Positions 7,710 through 30,779 of a DNA stretch of 64,000 nt are shown one piece after another (position 1 is the stretch's first letter; every line of letters starts with the position of its first letter). A program made the position numbers and the translations under genes. Source of the DNA: Pseudomonadota bacterium (GTDB lineage Bacteria; Pseudomonadota; Gammaproteobacteria; Steroidobacterales; Steroidobacteraceae). A model generated the notes under the pieces. It had not been told where the DNA came from and searched no databases. It worked only from the letters and a program-made list of their open reading frames with translations. The stretch is taken from assembly GCA_021815925.1 (NCBI GenBank), contig JAKAZL010000006.1, forward strand, positions 1 to 64,000. Reading direction: 5' to 3'.

Positions 7710-8210
7710 TCAGCGGCTGCCCGGCGAAGCCGACAGTTGTTCGAGCGCAGTGCCGCTCAGACGGAACATGCGCCAGTCGGCCAGCGGCTCGGCGCCGAGC
7801 CCGCGGTAAAAGGCGATCGACGGCTCGTTCCACTCCAGTACCGCCCAGTCCAGGCGCGCGCAGCGCCGCTCGACGGCGAGGCGCGCCAGGTGGCGCAACA
7901 GCAACCGGCCGATGCCCCGGCCGCGCAGGTGCGGCCTGACGTACAAATCCTCCAGGTAGATGCCCGGCTGTCCCTTGAACGTCGAGAAATTGTGGAAGAA
8001 CAGCGCGAAGCCCACCGGTACTTCGGCCTCGCAGGCGAACACGACTTCCGCGAAACGCTGCGCCCCGAACAGCCGCTCGCGCAGATCCGCCGGAGTCGCG
8101 AGCACCTCGTGCTCGAGGCGCTCGTAGCGGGCAAGCTCGCGGATGAACTCGAGTATCTGGTCGACGTCGGCCTCGACGGCCGGGCGGAGCTCGATCGTGG
8201 CGGCGTTCAT
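7710..8210 (-). CDS. GNAT-family N-acetyltransferase, SAT-like
   Basis: The 166-aa product is a full-length GNAT enzyme that transfers an acetyl group from acetyl-CoA to an amine. The acetyl-CoA loop reads RPHLRGRGIGRLLLRHLA (about residues 92-109), preceded by the strand GIYLEDLYVR and followed by LDWAVLEWNEPSIAFYRGLGAE. The layout and the FKGQPGIYLEDLYVRP segment resemble diamine (spermidine/spermine) acetyltransferases, but the substrate is not proven. The start overlaps the stop of the PEP carboxylase gene by four bases (ATGA), so the two are co-transcribed; this link has no obvious metabolic reason. Confidence 0.85.
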   Translation of the reverse strand: MNAATIELRPAVEADVDQILEFIRELARYERLEHEVLATPADLRERLFGAQRFAEVVFACEAEVPVGFALFFHNFSTFKGQPGIYLEDLYVRPHLRGRGIGRLLLRHLARLAVERRCARLDWAVLEWNEPSIAFYRGLGAEPLADWRMFRLSGTALEQLSASPGSR

Positions 8211-10924
8211 CCGGTGCTTTGCAGTCCCTGGGCAATGCCGGTCGTGCTGACCAACAGTGCCTCGAACAGGTCGCGGTCGGTGCGCCCGCCCGCGCGCCAG
8301 CGCGCCAGCAGATCGACCTGCATGAGATTCATCGGATCGATGTAGGGGTTGCGCAGGCGGATCGCTCGCTGCAGCAGCGGCTCGCCGTCGAGCAGCTCGC
8401 CGACGCCCTTGATCCGCAGCACCTGTTCGCGCGTCAGTTCGTACTCCGCGCGGATCACCTCGGCGAAGCGACGCAGCGGCTCGGGCGCCAGCTCGTGGTA
8501 GGCCGAGGCGATATCCAGGTCCGCGCGTGCCAGCATCGACTCGACGTCGTCAATCAGATTGCTCAGGAACGCCCACTCGCCGTACACGGCCTGCAATGTG
8601 ACTGCGCCGTGGCGCTCGGCGGCGGCCCGCAGACCCGAGCCCGCCCCGAACCAGGCCGGCAGCATGTGCCGGGTCTGCGTCCAGGCAAACACCCACGGCA
8701 CCGGCAACAGTCCATCGGTGCCCGCACCGGCGGGGCGGTGCATCGAGCGGGAGCCGACCTGCATCCGCTCGATGACGTCGATGGGGGTCGCTGCGCGGAA
8801 GAACTCGTGAAATTCGGGCTGCTCATAGACCAGTGCGCGGTACGCATCGCGGCTCGCGGCTGCGAGCGTGGCGGCGACCTCGATGTGCGCCGGCGGCGTC
8901 GGACGCGGATTACGCTCGGCGCAGGCGAGGCTCAGGGCGTTGAACGCACGCTCGAGCGTGCGCATTGCGATCGGACGCAGGCCATAGCCCTGCTTGATGG
9001 TCTCGCCCTGCTCGCGCAGGCGCAGGATGCCGTTGAGCGAGCCCGGAGGCGCGGAACGCACCAGTCGATCGATGCGCCCGCCGCCGCGTGCGACGCTGGC
9101 ACCGCGCACGTGCATGATGGCCGGGCTCTGCCCGCCGGTGCCGATGGTTTCGGTCAGCGCGCGCTGAGCCTGGTGGATTGCGAAGCGCGAGGCACAGGGC
9201 CCCGCCTCCCGGTTGCTGTCCGAGTAGCCGAGCAGCACGTTCTGGCGCGCACCGCGGCCCTCGAGATGGCGCGCGTAGGCCGGTACGGACAGAAGCTCGC
9301 GCATGATCGAGCCGCTGCGCTCGAGCGCAGCGATCGACTCGAACTGCGGCGCGATGTCGAGCGTCACCTGGCCGGTGCTCTTGTCGAATACCGCCGCCCA
9401 GCGTGCCAGCAGCACCGCGGCCAGGACGTCATCGACGCCCTGCGTGCCACTGACGATGAAGCAGCCGATCGCCTGCGGTCCGTAGCGGTGGCGGATCTGC
9501 GGGAAGGTCTCGAATACGGCGAGGTTGCGCCGGGCGAGTGCATCGAGCTCGACGCGAGGACCGGTGTCCTTCTCGAGCGCCTCGGCCAGCAGTCGCGCAC
9601 GCTCCTCGCTCGAGCGGCCCGTCCACAGCGGATCATCGTTGCCCTGGGCGATGATCTGGTGCAGCACGCTCGCGTGCTGGCGCACATCGAGGCTCGCGAG
9701 GTGAAAGCCGAACGTGTCGATGCGCCTGAGCAGGCGGCGGATCTGGAACAGCCCGGCCGTCGCCCCCTTGTTGGCCTGCAGGCTCTCGGCGATCAGCTGA
9801 ACGTCGTCACGGAATTGACGGACGTTGTCGTAGCCGCTACCCCGACCGTCCTGCGTATCGCGCAGGCGCAGCGCGAGTTGCGTCAGGAACAGCCGGTACG
9901 GCATGCGGTCGCGCCGGCCGAGCATTGCCGGGCGCGCCCCCGGAGCGAGCCGGGTGTACTCCTCGCTGCGCTGGGTCAGCTTGGCCGAGACGCTGGTGCG
10001 CCGCTCGCCCTGCGAGAGCCGTTCGGCGAGCTTCTGACACTCGCCGATGTAGGCGCCGAGCAGGATGTGCTGGTGCCTGGCCAGCGTCTCGCGGATGGTG
10101 CGGGCATGCACATCGGGATGCCCGTCCATGTCACCGCCCACCCACGAGCCGAAGCGCAGGATGTCGGGCAGATCGATCGACTCCGACGGCACGCTGAATA
10201 CCTTACCGAGCGCCTGGGCGATCTCCTCATAGAAGGCCGGGACGGCCCGATAGAGGATTTCGACCAGGTAGAAGATCACCTGCTCGCGCTCATCGCCCAC
10301 GGTCAGCTGTTTGCGCGGCAGCTCCTCGGTCTGCCAGGAGGTGGTCAGCTCGAAGCGGATCCCGTTCCACAGTCCGCGCTGCTCGTTCGGGGTCAGCGTC
10401 GGATCGAGCCGGCCGAACATGCGTTGGGCGATACGCTGCTGCTTGCGCAGCAGCGTGCGGCGCGTCGCCTGCAGCGCATGCGCGGAGAAGACCGGCTCGA
10501 TGTGCAGCGATCCGATCAGATCGAGCACCTGCTTGAGGGTCATGCCGCGCCCGGCGAGCTCGGCGATCGCGCTCTCGACGCCGCCGGGCTGCGGGTGATC
10601 GGTGGTGCGGAAGTACTCGCGCCGCCGCCGGATCCGATGCACGTTCTCGGCCAGGTTCACGGTGCGGAACCACATCGAGAAGGCGCGCACCAGCTCGCGC
10701 GCAAGCGCCGGAGGGCGGTCGCGGACCGAGGCGAGCAGTTCGGCGGTCGCCGCCGCGCTGCCCTCGCGGCGCGCGATGGCCGCGCGGCGGTCGAGTTCGA
10801 CCAGCTCGAACAGCGGCTGCCCGCCCTGTTCGCGCAGGATTTGCCCGATCAGCTCCCCGAGCGCGTGCACGTCCTCGCGCAGCGCGGCGTGCTCGGGCGG
10901 AAATTGGATGTCGCTTCGGTTCAC
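8207..10924 (-). CDS. ppc: Phosphoenolpyruvate carboxylase, divergent form
   Basis: The 905-aa product aligns along the whole PEP carboxylase family, which adds bicarbonate to PEP to give oxaloacetate and refill the TCA cycle. Preserved catalytic residues (E. coli numbering from memory) are H138 (here H149), R396 in LDVRQ, E506 in PQFES, D543 in LGYSDS, H579/R581/R587 in MHVRGASVARGGG, and R713 in WTQTR. Several signature positions differ: TAHPTE is SAHALQ (147-152), GYSDS-KD-G is GYSDSNREAG (K546 to R572), R699 of RAIPW is Leu (L740), GGDRDG is GGDMDG, and the C-terminus is QSTG instead of RNTG. The reading frame is intact and GC-typical, so it is expressed rather than decayed. The start is a GTG without a strong ribosome binding site. 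It is 17 bp downstream of the antiporter gene and overlaps the GNAT gene. Confidence 0.85.
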   Translation of the reverse strand: MNRSDIQFPPEHAALREDVHALGELIGQILREQGGQPLFELVELDRRAAIARREGSAAATAELLASVRDRPPALARELVRAFSMWFRTVNLAENVHRIRRRREYFRTTDHPQPGGVESAIAELAGRGMTLKQVLDLIGSLHIEPVFSAHALQATRRTLLRKQQRIAQRMFGRLDPTLTPNEQRGLWNGIRFELTTSWQTEELPRKQLTVGDEREQVIFYLVEILYRAVPAFYEEIAQALGKVFSVPSESIDLPDILRFGSWVGGDMDGHPDVHARTIRETLARHQHILLGAYIGECQKLAERLSQGERRTSVSAKLTQRSEEYTRLAPGARPAMLGRRDRMPYRLFLTQLALRLRDTQDGRGSGYDNVRQFRDDVQLIAESLQANKGATAGLFQIRRLLRRIDTFGFHLASLDVRQHASVLHQIIAQGNDDPLWTGRSSEERARLLAEALEKDTGPRVELDALARRNLAVFETFPQIRHRYGPQAIGCFIVSGTQGVDDVLAAVLLARWAAVFDKSTGQVTLDIAPQFESIAALERSGSIMRELLSVPAYARHLEGRGARQNVLLGYSDSNREAGPCASRFAIHQAQRALTETIGTGGQSPAIMHVRGASVARGGGRIDRLVRSAPPGSLNGILRLREQGETIKQGYGLRPIAMRTLERAFNALSLACAERNPRPTPPAHIEVAATLAAASRDAYRALVYEQPEFHEFFRAATPIDVIERMQVGSRSMHRPAGAGTDGLLPVPWVFAWTQTRHMLPAWFGAGSGLRAAAERHGAVTLQAVYGEWAFLSNLIDDVESMLARADLDIASAYHELAPEPLRRFAEVIRAEYELTREQVLRIKGVGELLDGEPLLQRAIRLRNPYIDPMNLMQVDLLARWRAGGRTDRDLFEALLVSTTGIAQGLQSTG

Positions 10925-23904: not shown

Positions 23905-25554
23905 ATGCTCGGACCCATGAACCCGAGCACCACCTCCCTCGCCTACAGCGCCGCGCGAGCCGTCCCGCCCACGGTCATGCCCACGGTCCTCGTCACCCCG
24001 CCCGCCGTCGAGCGCGCCTCCGAGGTGCTCACCCAGCGGGCGCTCGAGCTGCTGGCGCGGCTGCACCGGCAGTTCAATCCCCGGCGCCTGGAGCTGCTCG
24101 CCGCGCGCGCGCGGCGGCAGCGCGATTTCGACTCCGGCGTGCTGCCGGATTTCCTGGCGCACACCGCAGAGGTCCGGCGCGGCAGCTGGCGCATCGCGCC
24201 GGTGCCCTCCGACCTCGTCGACCGGCGAGTCGAGATCACCGGGCCGGTCGACCGCAAGATGATCATCAATGCGCTGAATGCGCCGGTCTGCGCGTTCATG
24301 GCGGACTTCGAGGATTCCTGCAGTCCGACCTGGCAGAACATGGTGCAGGGCCAGATCAACCTCGCTGATGCCGTCGATGGCACGATCAGCCACTGCGATG
24401 CGGTCAGCGGCAAGGTTTACCGCCTGGGAGCGCGGCGTGCGACCCTGATCGTTCGGCCGCGCGGCTGGCATCTGCCGGAAAAACACGTGCGCATCGACGG
24501 CGAGCCGGTCGCCGGCGCGCTGTTCGACGTCGCGCTATACCTGGCGCGCAATCACGACGGGCTGGCGCGCGCCGGCACCGGACCGTATTTCTACCTGCCG
24601 AAGCTCGAGAGTCACCTCGAGGCGCGGCTGTGGAGCGAGGTGTTCGCCGCGGCCGAGGATGCGCTCGGGCTGCAGCGCGGCACCATTCGCGTGACGGTGC
24701 TGATCGAGACGCTGCCGGCGGCGTTCGAGATGGACGAGATTCTCTTCGAACTGCGCCCCTACATCGCGGGCCTGAATTGCGGCCGGTGGGATTACATCTT
24801 CAGTTTCATCAAGAAGCTGCGCAACCGCAGCGAGTTCGTCCTGCCGGACCGCTCGCAGGTGACCATGGAGCGGCACTTCCTGAAGTCGTACGTGGACCTG
24901 CTCATCCAGACCTGTCACCGCCGCGGCGCTCATGCGATGGGCGGTATGGCCGCGCAGATCCCGGTGCGCGACAGCCAGGCCAACGCGGTGGCGATGGAAC
25001 GGGTGCGCGCGGACAAGCTGCGCGAGGCGCATGCCGGCCACGACGGCACCTGGATTGCGCATCCGGGTCTGGCCCCCGTGGCGCGCGCGGCATTCGATGC
25101 GGTGATGAGCGGCCCGAACCAGCTGCACGTGCAGCGCGCCGAGATCGCCGTGCGCCGCGAGGATCTGCTGCGCGTGCCGGGTGGCACCATCACCGAGGAG
25201 GGGATCCGCAGCAACATCCGCGTGGGCGTGCAGTACCTGGAGGCGTGGCTGCGCGGCAGCGGCTGCGTGCCGCTGTACAACCTCATGGAGGATGCCGCCA
25301 CCGCCGAGATCTGTCGCGCGCAACTGTGGCAGTGGCTGCACCACGGCGCGCACACCAGCGACGGGGCTCAGGTGACCCCCGAGCGCATCGACCGCCTGTT
25401 CGCCGAGGAGCTCGACCGGATCCACGCAGAGGTCGGCGCCGCGCGGCTGCTCGGCGGGGTATTCCCCACTGCCGCGCGACTGATGGAAAGGATGATCAAG
25501 CAGGAGGCCTTCGACGAATTCCTGACATTACCCGCGTACGAACTCATCGACTGA
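23905..25554 (+). CDS. aceB: Malate synthase A
   Basis: The 549-aa product has the usual length of malate synthase A, which joins glyoxylate and acetyl-CoA to malate. The signature [20 protein letters not shown] (from about residue 131) carries the active-site acidic residues. [36 protein letters not shown] and [14 protein letters not shown] follow in family order, with the C-terminal catalytic Asp region in [14 protein letters not shown]. An alternative ATG at 23917 ([10 protein letters not shown]) is equally plausible as start, since neither has a strong ribosome binding site. aceA follows 17 bp downstream, so the two form an operon. Confidence 0.95.
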
Positions 25555-25571
25555 CGGCCGGAGAACCTCGC

Positions 25572-26870
<1,299 letters not shown>

Positions 26871-26894
26871 GTGCCGCGCCGATATACTGGCGGC

Positions 26895-27503
26895 ATGAGC
26901 ATCGAGCGGCTGTTTCCGACGCAGATCTACACCTGCCGGCCGGCAGCCGCGGCCCGACTCGGGCCGCGGCTGCTGCGTGAGTCCCGCCAGCTGCGTCTCG
27001 ACGATGCGTCCGGCCGGCGCTGGTCGGCGCGCAACTACCCCGGCGGCTACACGTCCTACGGATCGGCGTGCCGCATGCACCAGCTGTCGCCGACCTTTGC
27101 GGCGCTCGAGCGCGCCATCGATCCGCACGTGCGGGCATTCGCCCGCGCGCTCGAGCTCGACCTGACCGGTCGCCCGCTTGCCATGACCGACTGCTGGGTC
27201 AACATCATGCCGCGCGGCACGGCCCACGGCTTGCACCTGCATCCGCTGGCCACCATCAGCGGCACCTTCTATCTGAAGACACCCCGCGGCTGCGCGGCGC
27301 TGAAGATCGAGGACCCGCGGCTCGATCGGATGATGGCCGCGCCGCCGCGTCGGCGTGCGGCGAGCCGCGCCAACCGGCCGTGGGTGCAGATTGCGGCGCA
27401 GGCCGGCGCGCTGGTGCTGTTCGAGAGCTGGCTGCGCCACGAGGTGCCCGCCAATCCAGCGGGCGAGCGCGTCAGCATCAGCTTCAATTACGGCTGGTTC
27501 TGA
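26895..27503 (+). CDS. Putative 2OG-Fe(II) oxygenase
   Basis: The 202-aa product matches the layout of a family of putative 2-oxoglutarate/Fe(II) oxygenases with a jelly-roll core. The first metal ligands lie in HGLHLHPLATISGTFYLK (about residue 116), the distal His in SWLRHEVPAN, and the 2-oxoglutarate-binding Arg in ERVSISFNYGWF at the C-terminus. The N-terminus MSIERLFPTQIYTCRP is typical. It would hydroxylate an unknown substrate and release succinate. It follows aceA by 24 bp, so it may be read with the glyoxylate genes, but whether the link is functional is open. The gap to the convergent slyD is 66 bp. Confidence 0.8.
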   Translation: MSIERLFPTQIYTCRPAAAARLGPRLLRESRQLRLDDASGRRWSARNYPGGYTSYGSACRMHQLSPTFAALERAIDPHVRAFARALELDLTGRPLAMTDCWVNIMPRGTAHGLHLHPLATISGTFYLKTPRGCAALKIEDPRLDRMMAAPPRRRAASRANRPWVQIAAQAGALVLFESWLRHEVPANPAGERVSISFNYGWF

Positions 27504-27569
27504 CCGCGGCGAGGCGCGGGTTGGTGAGGGTCGCGGCGCCGCACACGGCGGTGGCCGCCGCCGGTGGGA

Positions 27570-28055
27570 TCAATGGTGGTCGTGGCCGTGCGGACCGTGT
27601 ACGTGACCGTGCGCCAGCTCTTCTTCCGTGGCCGCACGCACGCCCTCGATGCGCACCTCGAAGTGCAGGCTCTGGCCGGCGAGCGGGTGGTTGCCGTCGA
27701 GCGTCACCATGTCGCCGATCATCTTGGTCACCGTCACCGTGCGGGTGCCTTCGGCGGTCTGCGCATGCAGGCGCATGCCCGTCGTCACATCCTTGATGCC
27801 GCGCAGCGCTCGGCGCGGCACGTCCTGCACCAGCTCCTTGCTGTACTCGCCGTAGCCCTCGGCGGGCGGCACCGTGACGGTGAGCTCATCGCCGGGATTC
27901 TTGCCGGTCAGCTGCTTCTCCAGCCCCGGGATGATGTTGCCGTGGCCGTGCAGATAGGCCAGTGGCTCGCCCGGCCCGGACTGATCCAGGACCGCCCCGG
28001 CATCGTCCTTGAGCGTGTAGTGGATGGTGACGACGGAATCGGTGCCAATGGCCAT
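27570..28055 (-). CDS. slyD: FKBP-type peptidyl-prolyl isomerase SlyD
   Basis: The 161-aa product has the SlyD layout: an FKBP half (DSVVTIHYTLKDDAGAVLDQS), the inserted chaperone flap (about residues 70-125), FKBP return (GNHPLAGQSLHFEVRIEGVR) and a short His-rich tail (HGHVHGPHGHDHH). It acts as a cytoplasmic prolyl isomerase and chaperone, and the His tail can bind Ni or other metals, as known from E. coli SlyD. The start at 28055 gives MAIGTDSVV, the family start; the longer open frame to 28265 has no conserved sequence. Confidence 0.93.
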   Translation of the reverse strand: MAIGTDSVVTIHYTLKDDAGAVLDQSGPGEPLAYLHGHGNIIPGLEKQLTGKNPGDELTVTVPPAEGYGEYSKELVQDVPRRALRGIKDVTTGMRLHAQTAEGTRTVTVTKMIGDMVTLDGNHPLAGQSLHFEVRIEGVRAATEEELAHGHVHGPHGHDHH

Positions 28056-28408
28056 CAGAGTGGGCTCCAGAGAATGCGTAGGGAGACTGGCGCGAGCGGT
28101 TGCAGCGCGGATTTGCCGACATTGTACCGTGACAGTGTGATGCCCGTCACGCCGGCCCGGGCGAGCTCTCCCGAAAGGAGTATCGCCACCGCCCCCGCGC
28201 TGGTCACGCCTTTCACCCTCGCGATGGACATGTCCGGCGTCGCGCCGCTCCCTACACTTGCGCACCTAAACTTTAGTGAAGGAACAACCCCATGCTCATC
28301 GCCGTTTCTCAGCTCATTCTCACCGTCGTGGTGCTGATCGCCTCTTCGGTGGAGTTCATCGCCTCCCGCCGGGGCTGATTCGCCGCCCCTCGCACGCCCG
28401 GCAGCCGC
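28056..28408. other. 353-bp gap between slyD and prpB
   Basis: The stretch holds only a possible 28-codon membrane ORF (28292-28378) and the slyD leader. A GTGAAGGAA ribosome-binding-site-like sequence precedes the small ORF, and TACACTT-like boxes lie near 28252. No other element is clear. Confidence 0.5.
28292..28378 (+). CDS. Possible 28-aa single-helix membrane protein
   Basis: A short frame starts at ATG 28292, with AAGGAA about 7 bases upstream, and ends at TGA 28378. The peptide is one hydrophobic helix, MLIAVSQLILTVVVLIASS followed by VEFIASRRG, with a basic end that would sit in the cytoplasm by the positive-inside rule. It resembles other very small bacterial membrane proteins in composition only. 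Nothing but composition and the ribosome-binding site supports it. Confidence 0.35.
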   Translation: MLIAVSQLILTVVVLIASSVEFIASRRG

Positions 28409-29314
28409 TCAGCGCGGCACGACACTCCTGACGATCGAGGCATCGAGCGCCTCATAGTCGGCATAGGCGATCGTCGTGTAGAGCTCCTGCCGGGTCTGCA
28501 TCTCCCCGATCAGACTCTTCGGTCCGCCCTCGCGAGCGATTGCCGCATACAGCCGCTCGTGCGCCTTGGCCGCGATGCGCAGCGCACTGACCGGCCAGAT
28601 CACCATCCGATACCCCATGGCCTGGAACTCCTCGGCCGTGAAATAAGGGGTGCGGCCGAATTCGGTCATGTTGGCCAGGAGCGGCGCCTCGACCCGGCGC
28701 GCAAATTCACGGAACATCTCCGCGCTGGTCAGCGCCTCCGGAAAGATCGCATCGGCCCCCGCTTCGAGGTACCGGCGGGCGCGCGCGACGGCGCCGTCGA
28801 GCCCCTCGCTCGCGGCCGCATCGGTGCGCGCGATGATGTACAGGTGCCGGCGGGCGCGTGCGGCGGCGGCGACCTTGGCCGCCATCTCCTCGACCGGCAG
28901 CAGCTTCTTGTCGTTCAGATGGCCGCACTTCTTCGGCAGCACCTGATCCTCGATGTGCACGGCGGCGGCGCCCGCCTCCTCGAATGCACGCACCATGTGC
29001 ATCACGTTGAGCGCCTCGCCGTACCCGGTATCCCCGTCGACCAGCACCGGCAGCTGCGCCGCGCGGCTCACCTGCCGGATGAACACGCAGACGTCGTCCA
29101 CGGTGAGGATGCCGAGGTCCGGCAGTCCCATCGAGGCGCTCATGGCCGCCCCGGACAGGTACAAAGCCTCGAACCCGGCGGCCTTCGCCTGCAGCGCGGC
29201 CAGGCCGTTGTACGCGCCGGGCATGCGCAGGATCGGCCCGCGCCGCACGAGCGCGCCGAAGCGTTCGCCAGCGGGCGTGGCCGGCAGATCGGCCCCAACG
29301 AGGTAAGTGCTCAA
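28409..29314 (-). CDS. prpB: 2-methylisocitrate lyase
   Basis: The 301-aa product splits 2-methylisocitrate to pyruvate and succinate, the last step of the methylcitrate cycle. The catalytic loop KKCGHLNDKKLLP (residues 128-140) and the metal-binding DGDTGYGEALNVMHMVRAFE are intact. Neighbours prpD (13 bp) and prpC are on the same strand, so this is the third gene of the operon prpC-prpD-prpB. It shares the isocitrate-lyase superfamily with aceA, but its short length and the prp context fix the assignment. Confidence 0.95.
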   Translation of the reverse strand: MSTYLVGADLPATPAGERFGALVRRGPILRMPGAYNGLAALQAKAAGFEALYLSGAAMSASMGLPDLGILTVDDVCVFIRQVSRAAQLPVLVDGDTGYGEALNVMHMVRAFEEAGAAAVHIEDQVLPKKCGHLNDKKLLPVEEMAAKVAAAARARRHLYIIARTDAAASEGLDGAVARARRYLEAGADAIFPEALTSAEMFREFARRVEAPLLANMTEFGRTPYFTAEEFQAMGYRMVIWPVSALRIAAKAHERLYAAIAREGGPKSLIGEMQTRQELYTTIAYADYEALDASIVRSVVPR

Positions 29315-29327
29315 CGGCGCATCTCCC

Positions 29328-30779
29328 TCAGATCACGTACAGGTCGAGGTATTCGTTGACCGGCGTGCGCTCGAGGCGAGCCTGATCGAGCGACAGTGCC
29401 GCGATCGCGTGCTGCTGCTTTTCCGGAAAGCGCCGCGCCAGGTTGCGCCGGAACTTCTCGATCAGCAGCGGGATGCCTTCGGCGCGCCGCCGCTTGTGGC
29501 CGATCGGATACTCGACCACGACCTCCGGCAGCTCGCGACCGTCCTTCAGCCGTACCGTCACCGCGTTGGCGATGGAGCGCTTGTGCGGATCGAGATAGTC
29601 GCGTGTGAACTGCGGATCCTCCACGCAGCTGATCTTGGCACGCAGCGCATCGATGCGCGGATCGGCCGCCACCCCGTCCTCGTAGTCGGCGGCGGTCAGC
29701 CGGCCGAACAGCAGCGGCACGGCCATCATGTACTGGATGCAGTGATCGCGGTCGGCAGGGTTGGCGAGCGGGCCGCGCTTGTCGATGATGCGCACGCAGG
29801 CCTCGTGCGTGCGCACGGTGATTCGCTCGATCTGCTCGGCACTCGCGCCGAGTTCGCTGAGCTGCCGGTGCAGCTGCATGGCCGCCTCGACCGCTGTCTG
29901 CGCGTGAAACTCCGCGGGGTAGGAGATCTTGAACAGCACATTCTCCATCACGTACGAACCGTAGTCGCGCTGGAACTTCAGCGGCTGTCCCTTGAACAGC
30001 ACGTCGTAGAACCCCCAGGTCTTGGCGGTGAGCGCTGTCGGGTAGCCCATCTCCCCGGTGCGGGCCATCAGGGCCAGGCGCACGGCCCGGCTGGTGGCAT
30101 CGCCGGCGGCCCAGCTCTTGCGTGAGCCGGCGTTCGGCGCGTGACGATAGGTGCGCAGGCTCTGCCCGTCGATCCAGGCCAGCGAGACGGCGTTGATGAT
30201 CTCCTCGCGGCTGAGGCCGAGCAGCCGTCCGACCACGGCGGTCGAGGCCACCTTCACCAGCACCACGTGATCGAGCCCGACCCGGTTGAAGCTGTTCTCG
30301 AGCGCGATCACGCCCTGGATCTCGTGGGCGCGGATCATGGCCGTGAGCACCTCGCGCATCGTCAACGGCGCGCGTCCCTGCGCAACGGCCTGACGGGACA
30401 GCCAGTCGGCTGTGGCGAGGATGCCGCCGAGATTGTCGGAGGGGTGTCCCCACTCGGCGGCGAGCCAGGTGTCGTTGAAGTCGAGCCAGCGGATCATCGC
30501 GCCGATATTGAATGCCGCCTGCACCGGATCGAGCTGAAACTGGGTGCCCGGAACTCGTGCGCCGTGCGGCACGTAGGTGCCCGGCACGATCGGGCCGAGC
30601 AGCTTCGCGCAGGCCGGGTATTCGAGCGCCTCGAGGCCGCAGCCGAGCGTGTCGAGCAGGCAATGGTGTGCGGTCTGATAGGCCAGCTCCCCGCCCGGGT
30701 CGGCGCCGAGCACGTAGTCGGCGATAGCGGTGAGGACCTGGTCGGGAGCGGGTCGCGCGGAATCGGTGTGGCTGGACAT
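29328..30779 (-). CDS. prpD: 2-methylcitrate dehydratase
   Basis: The 483-aa product is a full-length PrpD of the MmgE/PrpD family, which dehydrates 2-methylcitrate to 2-methylaconitate. Conserved stretches include [49 protein letters not shown], and [24 protein letters not shown]-like sequence near residue 215. It is co-directional with prpC (21-bp gap) and prpB (13-bp gap). The Fe-S-independent PrpD is used here; no AcnD/PrpF pair is present in the window. Confidence 0.95.

What the first reader, a model, noticed from the sequence alone, without database searches (positions are those of the whole stretch)
8207..10924. PEP carboxylase with altered catalytic signatures
The frame is intact, yet the first family signature (TAHPTE/Q) reads SAHALQ at residues 147-152, the second (GYSDS-KD-G) reads GYSDSNREAG so the conserved Lys becomes Arg, the RAIPW arginine becomes Leu (L740), FHGRGG becomes MHVRGA, and the C-terminus ends QSTG instead of RNTG. 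The catalytic His, the acidic metal ligands and three conserved Arg remain. The lost Asn at the C-terminus and a Lys-to-Arg change in MLARAD touch the aspartate inhibition site. This may be a PEPC insensitive to aspartate, or one with changed chemistry. Codons at the HAL and LPVPW sites were checked in the DNA. Some of these differences could be shared by a whole divergent clade.
Basis: partly seen in the sequence, partly recalled or inferred. Interest (0 to 1): 0.6.

Follow-up and report, generated by a model that had tools for sequence, protein, structure and literature searches.

The report
PEP carboxylase with a moved arginine
A common metabolic enzyme, PEP carboxylase, has in one bacterial genus lost an arginine reported as essential for its activity, and nearly all members have gained a new arginine elsewhere, apparently in the active site, so this is either an enzyme rebuilt by evolution or one that has left its old job.

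Summary
The 905-aa protein is the only PEPC match in this incomplete genome (family Steroidobacteraceae, inferred). By the tree it is the vertically inherited ppc, and recurrence rules out an error. The changes mark a clade. In the window's genus, 54 of 58 genomes carry this gene; Arg713 (E. coli numbering; window Leu740) is absent in 53 of 53 readable copies. Its Flaveria equivalent, Arg767, is reported essential for catalysis. The two without it form the deepest branch, so Arg713 was lost first. Metal ligands, His138, Arg396, Arg581, Arg587 and Arg699 stay fixed, under purifying selection. Elsewhere in the family clade, 43 of 60 homologues change one or more of ten catalytic residues, against 0 of 46 complete class controls (two very divergent ones set aside). 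Five genus genomes keep the altered copy beside an intact second PEPC. Best reading: an active-site-remodelled PEPC, probably still metal- and PEP-binding, with relocated phosphate-binding charge and weaker bicarbonate binding. A changed or non-catalytic role is nearly as likely. Aspartate insensitivity is weakly supported. Activity is untested.

The parts
8207..10924 (-). ppc homologue, 905 aa, GTG start
   Evidence: PF00311 723 bits; NCBIfam PRK00009 715.6 bits, below its 815 cut-off
10469..10486 (-). SAHALQ, in place of TAHPTE; catalytic His149 (E. coli H138) kept
9680..9682 (-). Arg415 (E. coli R396), kept
9344..9346 (-). Gln527 (E. coli L504), genus-diagnostic change near metal ligand E506
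9338..9340 (-). Glu529 (E. coli E506), metal ligand, kept
9218..9220 (-). Asp569 (E. coli D543), metal ligand, kept
9209..9211 (-). Arg572 (E. coli K546), bicarbonate-site Lys to Arg; nearest relatives other than G013 have Met
9104..9106 (-). Arg607 (E. coli R581), kept
9086..9088 (-). Arg613 (E. coli R587), kept
9014..9016 (-). Arg637 (E. coli T611), gained arginine at the end of predicted barrel strand 633-638
8747..8749 (-). Arg726 (E. coli R699), kept
8705..8707 (-). Leu740 (E. coli R713; Flaveria Arg767), lost arginine
8525..8527 (-). Arg800 (E. coli K773, aspartate site)
8216..8218 (-). Ser903 (E. coli N881, aspartate site)
7710..8210 (-). GNAT-family acetyltransferase; start codon overlaps the ppc stop codon (ATGA)
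   Evidence: PF00583 70.8 bits; overlap; a homologue lies near ppc in 24 of 81 loci, directly downstream on the same strand in 21 by my distance rule
23905..25554 (+). malate synthase A (metabolic context)
   Evidence: TIGR01344 788.7 bits over cut-off 594.5
25605..26858 (+). isocitrate lyase, matched range (metabolic context)
   Evidence: PF00463, two stretches

Best explanation
This is the native ppc of a Steroidobacteraceae bacterium, with a rebuilt active site. In an ancestor of its genus the arginine of the RAIPW loop (Arg713, a PEP phosphate contact, role recalled) was lost. Later, in nearly all members, an arginine was gained at position 611, at the mouth of the barrel (Arg637 here). 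I think the enzyme still binds Mg2+ and PEP and runs PEPC-type chemistry: metal ligands Glu529 and Asp569 and catalytic His149 remain, and Arg637 stands in for the lost arginine. Arg572 in place of Lys probably weakens bicarbonate binding. Shown: sequence, clade, order of events on the tree, purifying selection, fold by prediction. Inferred: the replacement role of Arg637, and activity.
For: Eight other catalytic positions barely vary in the genus: 52 of 52 readable for H138; 53 of 53 for R396, E506, D543, R581, R587, R699; 51 of 53 for H579. In a 38-sequence genus set, R713L and T611R are two of only six diagnostic residues; T611 is Thr in 47 of 47 class controls. The deepest genus pair, G005 and G010, has lost R713 without R611, and both hold an intact second PEPC. 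dN/dS for ten genus pairs is 0.03-0.09 by YN00 and 0.05-0.21 by NG86. In four two-copy genomes the altered copy has lower dN than the canonical copy in 6 of 6 pairs (pairs not independent). Model pLDDT 89.8; position 637 lies in strand 633-638, next to its end; E. coli PEPC 1jqn matches at TM 0.86/0.89. Replacing the K546 equivalent by Arg or Thr raised Km for HCO3- up to 9-fold with minimal effect on Vmax (PMC4085955 passage).
Against: Arg767 of Flaveria, the R713 equivalent, is called essential in a paper title (Gao and Woo 1996, seen only in a reference list; numbering checked). G005 and G010 keep the altered gene with an arginine at neither position. Five genomes keep it beside an intact PEPC, so its task may not be standard PEPC. 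The gain of R611 maps to one branch, so coupling to R713 is not statistically shown, and the distance between 611 and 713 was not measured. 43 of 60 other members of the family clade change catalytic residues, so the family tolerates loss of normal catalysis.
Confidence: 0.48

Rival explanations
1. The family's ppc has left PEPC catalysis. The protein is kept for a non-catalytic or regulatory role (a pseudoenzyme), while pyruvate carboxylase, GTP-PEPCK and the glyoxylate shunt supply oxaloacetate.
For: In the family clade outside the genus, 15 of 60 lack an acidic residue at a metal-ligand position and 43 of 60 change one or more of ten positions, for example D543A with R581Q in Povalibacter and Peristeroidobacter. 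Of 24 f1 genomes in the order sample, 24 have GTP-PEPCK, 21 have a PF00463 isocitrate lyase match, one of them weak, and 17 have full-length pyruvate carboxylase. In the genus, 49 of 58 have pyruvate carboxylase over cut-off. The window's genome lacks the single-chain form but has a biotin carboxylase beside a frame resembling pyruvate carboxylase subunit B, below cut-off. Altered copies persist beside intact PEPC in five genus genomes.
Against: In the window's genus the metal ligands, His138, R396, R581, R587 and R699 are fixed in all readable copies, which a non-catalytic protein would not need.
Confidence: 0.27
2. The active site works on a different substrate or stops at a partial reaction, such as bicarbonate-dependent PEP hydrolysis or oxaloacetate decarboxylation.
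For: Changes cluster in sequence around the catalytic residues: 10 of 25 near positions changed against 2 of 24 far ones among canonical-invariant columns (Fisher p 0.018; T611R counts as far). The altered copy persists, slowly evolving, beside an intact PEPC.
Against: No candidate substrate, no partner gene conserved across the loci examined, and the other first-shell residues are kept, apart from K546.
Confidence: 0.18
3. An ordinary PEPC that has merely lost aspartate inhibition.
For: K773R and N881S at the aspartate site.
Against: R587 and R832 are kept. The same two positions vary in class controls with intact catalytic residues. It does not explain R713L, T611R or L504Q.
Confidence: 0.07

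Closest known systems
Bacterial phosphoenolpyruvate carboxylase (Ppc, EC 4.1.1.31; E. coli 1FIY/1JQN)
   Same: Full-length PF00311 match, predicted fold, metal ligands, catalytic His, R396, R581, R587, R699, R832
   Different: R713L, T611R, K546R, both family signatures broken, below the NCBIfam equivalog cut-off; about 29% identity
Other Steroidobacteraceae Ppc (Povalibacter, Peristeroidobacter and MAGs)
   Same: One clade on the tree, about 48-65% identity, canonical catalytic positions often changed
   Different: They change other positions (D543A, R581Q, E506D with D543E, R396T/L/M) and almost all keep R713 (59 of 60)
Woeseiaceae-type Ppc (family f7 and named Woeseiaceae records)
   Same: Relatives with intact catalytic residues, about 46% identity
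   Different: All ten catalytic residues intact in those sampled; the one scored (L132) passes the NCBIfam cut-off
Plant PEPC mutants at Arg767 and Lys600 (Flaveria)
   Same: Equivalent positions R713 and K546
   Different: Laboratory mutants: Arg767 called essential, Lys600 mutants with raised Km (paper title and second-hand passages). Here the changes are natural, with a further arginine gained at 611

Membership tests
Phosphoenolpyruvate carboxylase (PEPC) | Full-length PF00311 homology | tested here: met
   723.3 bits, profile 1-919
Phosphoenolpyruvate carboxylase (PEPC) | NCBIfam equivalog cut-off (PRK00009, 815 bits) | tested here: not met
   715.6 bits; of five other homologues scored, also missed by L045 at 724.7, L077 at 760.3, Peristeroidobacter at 781.4 and Povalibacter at 813.9, met by L132 at 893.5
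Phosphoenolpyruvate carboxylase (PEPC) | PEPC fold | tested here: met
   AF2 pLDDT 89.8; the 50 PDB matches listed are PEPC chains
Phosphoenolpyruvate carboxylase (PEPC) | Metal ligands Glu and Asp, and catalytic His | tested here: met
   E529, D569, H149; fixed in readable genus copies
Phosphoenolpyruvate carboxylase (PEPC) | RAIPW arginine (R713) | tested here: not met
   Leu740; 0 of 53 readable genus copies have Arg
Phosphoenolpyruvate carboxylase (PEPC) | Family signature patterns TAHPT[EQ] and GYSDSxKD-G (patterns recalled) | tested here: not met
   SAHALQ and GYSDSNREAG
Phosphoenolpyruvate carboxylase (PEPC) | Oxaloacetate from PEP and bicarbonate | not testable with these tools
   needs an assay
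Pseudoenzyme derived from PEPC | Loss of residues required for catalysis | tested here: inconclusive
   R713 lost and K546 changed, but eight other positions kept in the window; metal-ligand losses occur in relatives outside the genus
Pseudoenzyme derived from PEPC | Retained under purifying selection | tested here: met
   dN/dS 0.03-0.09 (YN00) or 0.05-0.21 (NG86) for ten genus pairs

The most novel reading that the evidence does not exclude
Across Steroidobacteraceae the housekeeping ppc gene has ceased to be a normal PEPC. Lineage after lineage has rewritten its catalytic residues, including metal ligands, while strong purifying selection keeps the scaffold, so a second function of PEPC, so far unknown, is what selection preserves. 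In the window's genus this took the form of a relocated active-site arginine and a new activity.
Probability: 0.33. Interest if true: 0.72.

Novelty: new variant of a known kind. Interest (0 to 1): 0.52.

Why it matters
PEPC is a textbook enzyme with near-invariant catalytic residues. A genus-wide natural loss of an arginine reported as essential, with a second-site arginine gained later, offers a ready experiment in active-site rewiring. The family also warns that a ppc annotation in Steroidobacteraceae does not establish PEPC activity, which affects metabolic models of these environmental bacteria.

Tried and rejected
Sequencing or assembly error: rejected, the changes recur in many genomes. 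Horizontal gain of an odd PEPC: not supported for this copy, which nests within the family clade; the intact second copies group away from it.

A conserved operon partner: none found across the loci examined (the clusters are noisy in this high-GC DNA, and one cluster that I first took for the GNAT gene was an overlapping false frame). Searched with the real protein, a GNAT homologue lies near ppc in 24 of 81 loci, 21 by my rule for direct downstream neighbours. Strict R713-T611 coupling: first seemed perfect in 38 of 38, then broken by G005 and G010, so I withdrew 'simultaneous exchange' in favour of loss first and gain later.

Link between missing pyruvate carboxylase and residue 546: no pattern (G000 has Arg, G295 Met, G300 Lys). 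Simple relaxed decay: over the 92 sequences of the family clade, catalytic and other canonical-invariant columns are kept about equally (0.866 against 0.840); positions near the catalytic residues are less kept than far ones ('near' means within 7 residues in sequence, not in space; genus p 0.035, rest of family p 3.3e-5).

Literature: no paper for PEPC with Arg713 or with 'pseudoenzyme'; one paper holds Steroidobacteraceae and PEPC together (listing only); the Steroidobacter cummioxidans genome paper has no occurrence of 'carboxylase' in its main text (passages). Searches gave only what is cited. Passages of PMC5259782 and PMC7046716 added nothing on R713. Most subscription papers are not held, so absence there proves little.

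Limits: the canonical set of 84 or 86 includes 38 or 40 sequences that I picked as intact, so invariance of the ten positions in those is by choice; 16 rows from other families of the order were left out of it, 15 of them altered at two or more positions or at K546, and one with R581Q (L056). The unpicked control is the class set: 47 of 49 class loci fetched (30 of them the best-scoring; 72 matches were listed); L203 and L204 failed a length filter and on separate alignment, with L211 of the order, read Asp at 579; L176 is cut short by a stop. Membership of unnamed MAG records in the family rests on the tree. Trees are quick builds with SH-aLRT support only; the genus tree used a single-matrix model. 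The AF2 alignment used the window and 53 of 80 loci.
Full report
WHAT WAS CHECKED. The frame at 8207-10924 (-) is open and codes 905 aa. It matches PF00311 over the whole profile at 723 bits but scores 715.6 bits against the NCBIfam equivalog, under its 815 cut-off. It is the only PEPC match in its genome, a 2.73 Mb assembly in 143 contigs, 93.8% complete.

THE CLADE. In 126 sequences and a tree of 140 the protein falls in one clade with the other Ppc of family f1. Several other families of the order, such as f7 (which groups with Woeseiaceae records), have intact motifs in the sequences sampled.

TEN CATALYTIC POSITIONS. I followed H138, R396, E506, D543, K546, H579, R581, R587, R699 and R713. 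That Mg2+ is held by a Glu and an Asp, and that a conserved His acts on a loop, was read in PMC10176493 (passages); the role of K546 was read in PMC4085955 and PMC6363079 (passages); numbering and the roles of the other arginines and H579 are recalled. In the class control 46 of 47 sequences keep all ten, and the 47th is truncated rather than substituted; two further divergent class homologues have Asp at 579. In the f1 clade outside the window's genus, 43 of 60 change at least one and 27 change two or more; 15 lack an acidic residue at a metal-ligand position; six show E506D together with D543E. Similar losses occur in other branches of the order (H138P in f6 genus g18, D543R in f12, R587A and R713G in f15 genus g31).

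THE WINDOW'S GENUS. All 58 genus genomes were considered: 54 carry this ppc and four gave no PEPC match (G003, 98% complete; G008, G022, G031, 62-72% complete). R713 is Leu in 52, Met in 1, unreadable in 1. Position 611 is Arg in 52 and Thr in 2. K546 is Lys 35, Met 16, Arg 2 (window and G013), unreadable 1. H138 is kept in 52 of 52 readable; R396, E506, D543, R581, R587 and R699 in 53 of 53; H579 in 51 of 53 (one Asp, one Tyr). The two Thr611 copies, G005 and G010, are the deepest branch (support 99-100), so R713 went first and R611 came later. Only six residues of the protein were genus-diagnostic in a 38-sequence set that lacked that pair: 204, 402, 504, 611, 616, 713 in E. coli numbering.

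WHAT THE ARGININES MEAN. Flaveria Arg767 is the R713 equivalent: in the 3zgb chain the RAIPW arginine is 773 and the GYSDSGK lysine 606 (from the alignment), and 606 corresponds to Flaveria 600 (PMC4085955). The title of Gao and Woo 1996 calls Arg450 and Arg767 essential for catalytic activity (seen in the reference list of PMC6363079; the paper itself was not read). For the K546 equivalent, replacement by Arg or Thr raised Km for bicarbonate up to 9-fold with minimal effect on Vmax (PMC4085955); PMC6363079 says both Km values rose. The 50 structural matches listed are PEPCs, E. coli 1jqn among them.

SELECTION. For ten genus pairs dN/dS is 0.03-0.09 by YN00 and 0.05-0.21 by NG86. For canonical pairs it is 0.04-0.12 by YN00 (two of five computed) and 0.06-0.13 by NG86 (four of five computed). 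So the altered gene is clearly constrained, though not shown to be more so than canonical ppc by that measure. In the four genomes G005, G010, G303 and G304 that hold both copies, dN of the altered copy is below that of the intact copy in 6 of 6 pairs, with dS above 1 in five of the six. The altered gene is therefore not a relic.

METABOLIC SETTING. In 147 genomes of the order, 24 of them f1: GTP-PEPCK in 24 of 24 f1, ATP-PEPCK in 0 of 24, a PF00463 isocitrate lyase match in 21 of 24, one of them (G061) weak, full-length pyruvate carboxylase in 17 of 24, counting only frames over 1100 aa. In the genus, pyruvate carboxylase passes its cut-off in 49 of 58; five more show partial or split genes; for G000, G015, G295 and G300 the listing shows only biotin-carboxylase-like matches. 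The window's genome does have, on contig C90, a biotin carboxylase followed by a frame whose best match is pyruvate carboxylase subunit B (285 bits, cut-off 402), so a divergent two-subunit carboxylase is possible. The window itself carries malate synthase A and isocitrate lyase. So loss of PEPC flux could be borne.

JUDGEMENT. Fixed metal ligands, His and four first-shell arginines in the genus argue for retained catalysis. Retention beside an intact PEPC, the missing essential arginine and the family-wide rewriting argue against ordinary PEPC. I place a remodelled, still PEPC-like enzyme first at 0.48, with a non-catalytic role (0.27) and changed chemistry (0.18) behind. Aspartate insensitivity alone explains little (0.07).

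Noticed in passing
L022, L144, L145 (order family f6, genus g18): Full-length PEPC homologues with SAPRTQ or TAPRTQ in place of TAHPTE, so the catalytic His is lost, with K546D and R713D: likely inactive as PEPC.
   Followed up: partly
L149, L150 (order family f12): PEPC homologues with GYSDSxKDAG replaced by DHARSRLVFD (metal ligand D543R); L150's genome G062 also holds an intact E. coli-like PEPC (L161), and L149's genome G096 has a second, unexamined PEPC match.
   Followed up: partly
L154, L157, L158 (order family f15, genus g31): PEPC homologues with K546V and R713G, R587 changed to Ala or Leu; G134 has an intact second PEPC (L160).
   Followed up: partly
L042, L045, L083, L085, L101, L128: Metal ligands changed together, E506D with D543E, a length swap between the two acidic residues.
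   Followed up: partly
L203, L204, L211: A very divergent PEPC type, about 20-23% identical to the window protein, with GFSDGTKDGG and FDGRGG (Asp at 579).
   Followed up: no
window 7710-8210 (-): GNAT acetyltransferase whose ATG overlaps the ppc stop; homologue near ppc in 24 of 81 loci examined.
   Followed up: partly
G000 contig C90:161500-165065 (L254): Biotin carboxylase followed by a frame resembling pyruvate carboxylase subunit B, below cut-off: perhaps a divergent two-subunit carboxylase.
   Followed up: partly
window 23905-30779: Glyoxylate-shunt genes (malate synthase, isocitrate lyase), then open frames that read like prpB (28409-29314) and prpD (29328-30779); the prp names are recalled, not searched.
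   Followed up: no
L090: A MAG labelled Janthinobacterium lividum carries a Steroidobacteraceae-type ppc; the record is probably mislabelled or mixed.
   Followed up: no
L176 (G276) and G273:C276: PEPC genes with an in-frame stop (TAA and TAG) in class-level genomes.
   Followed up: no
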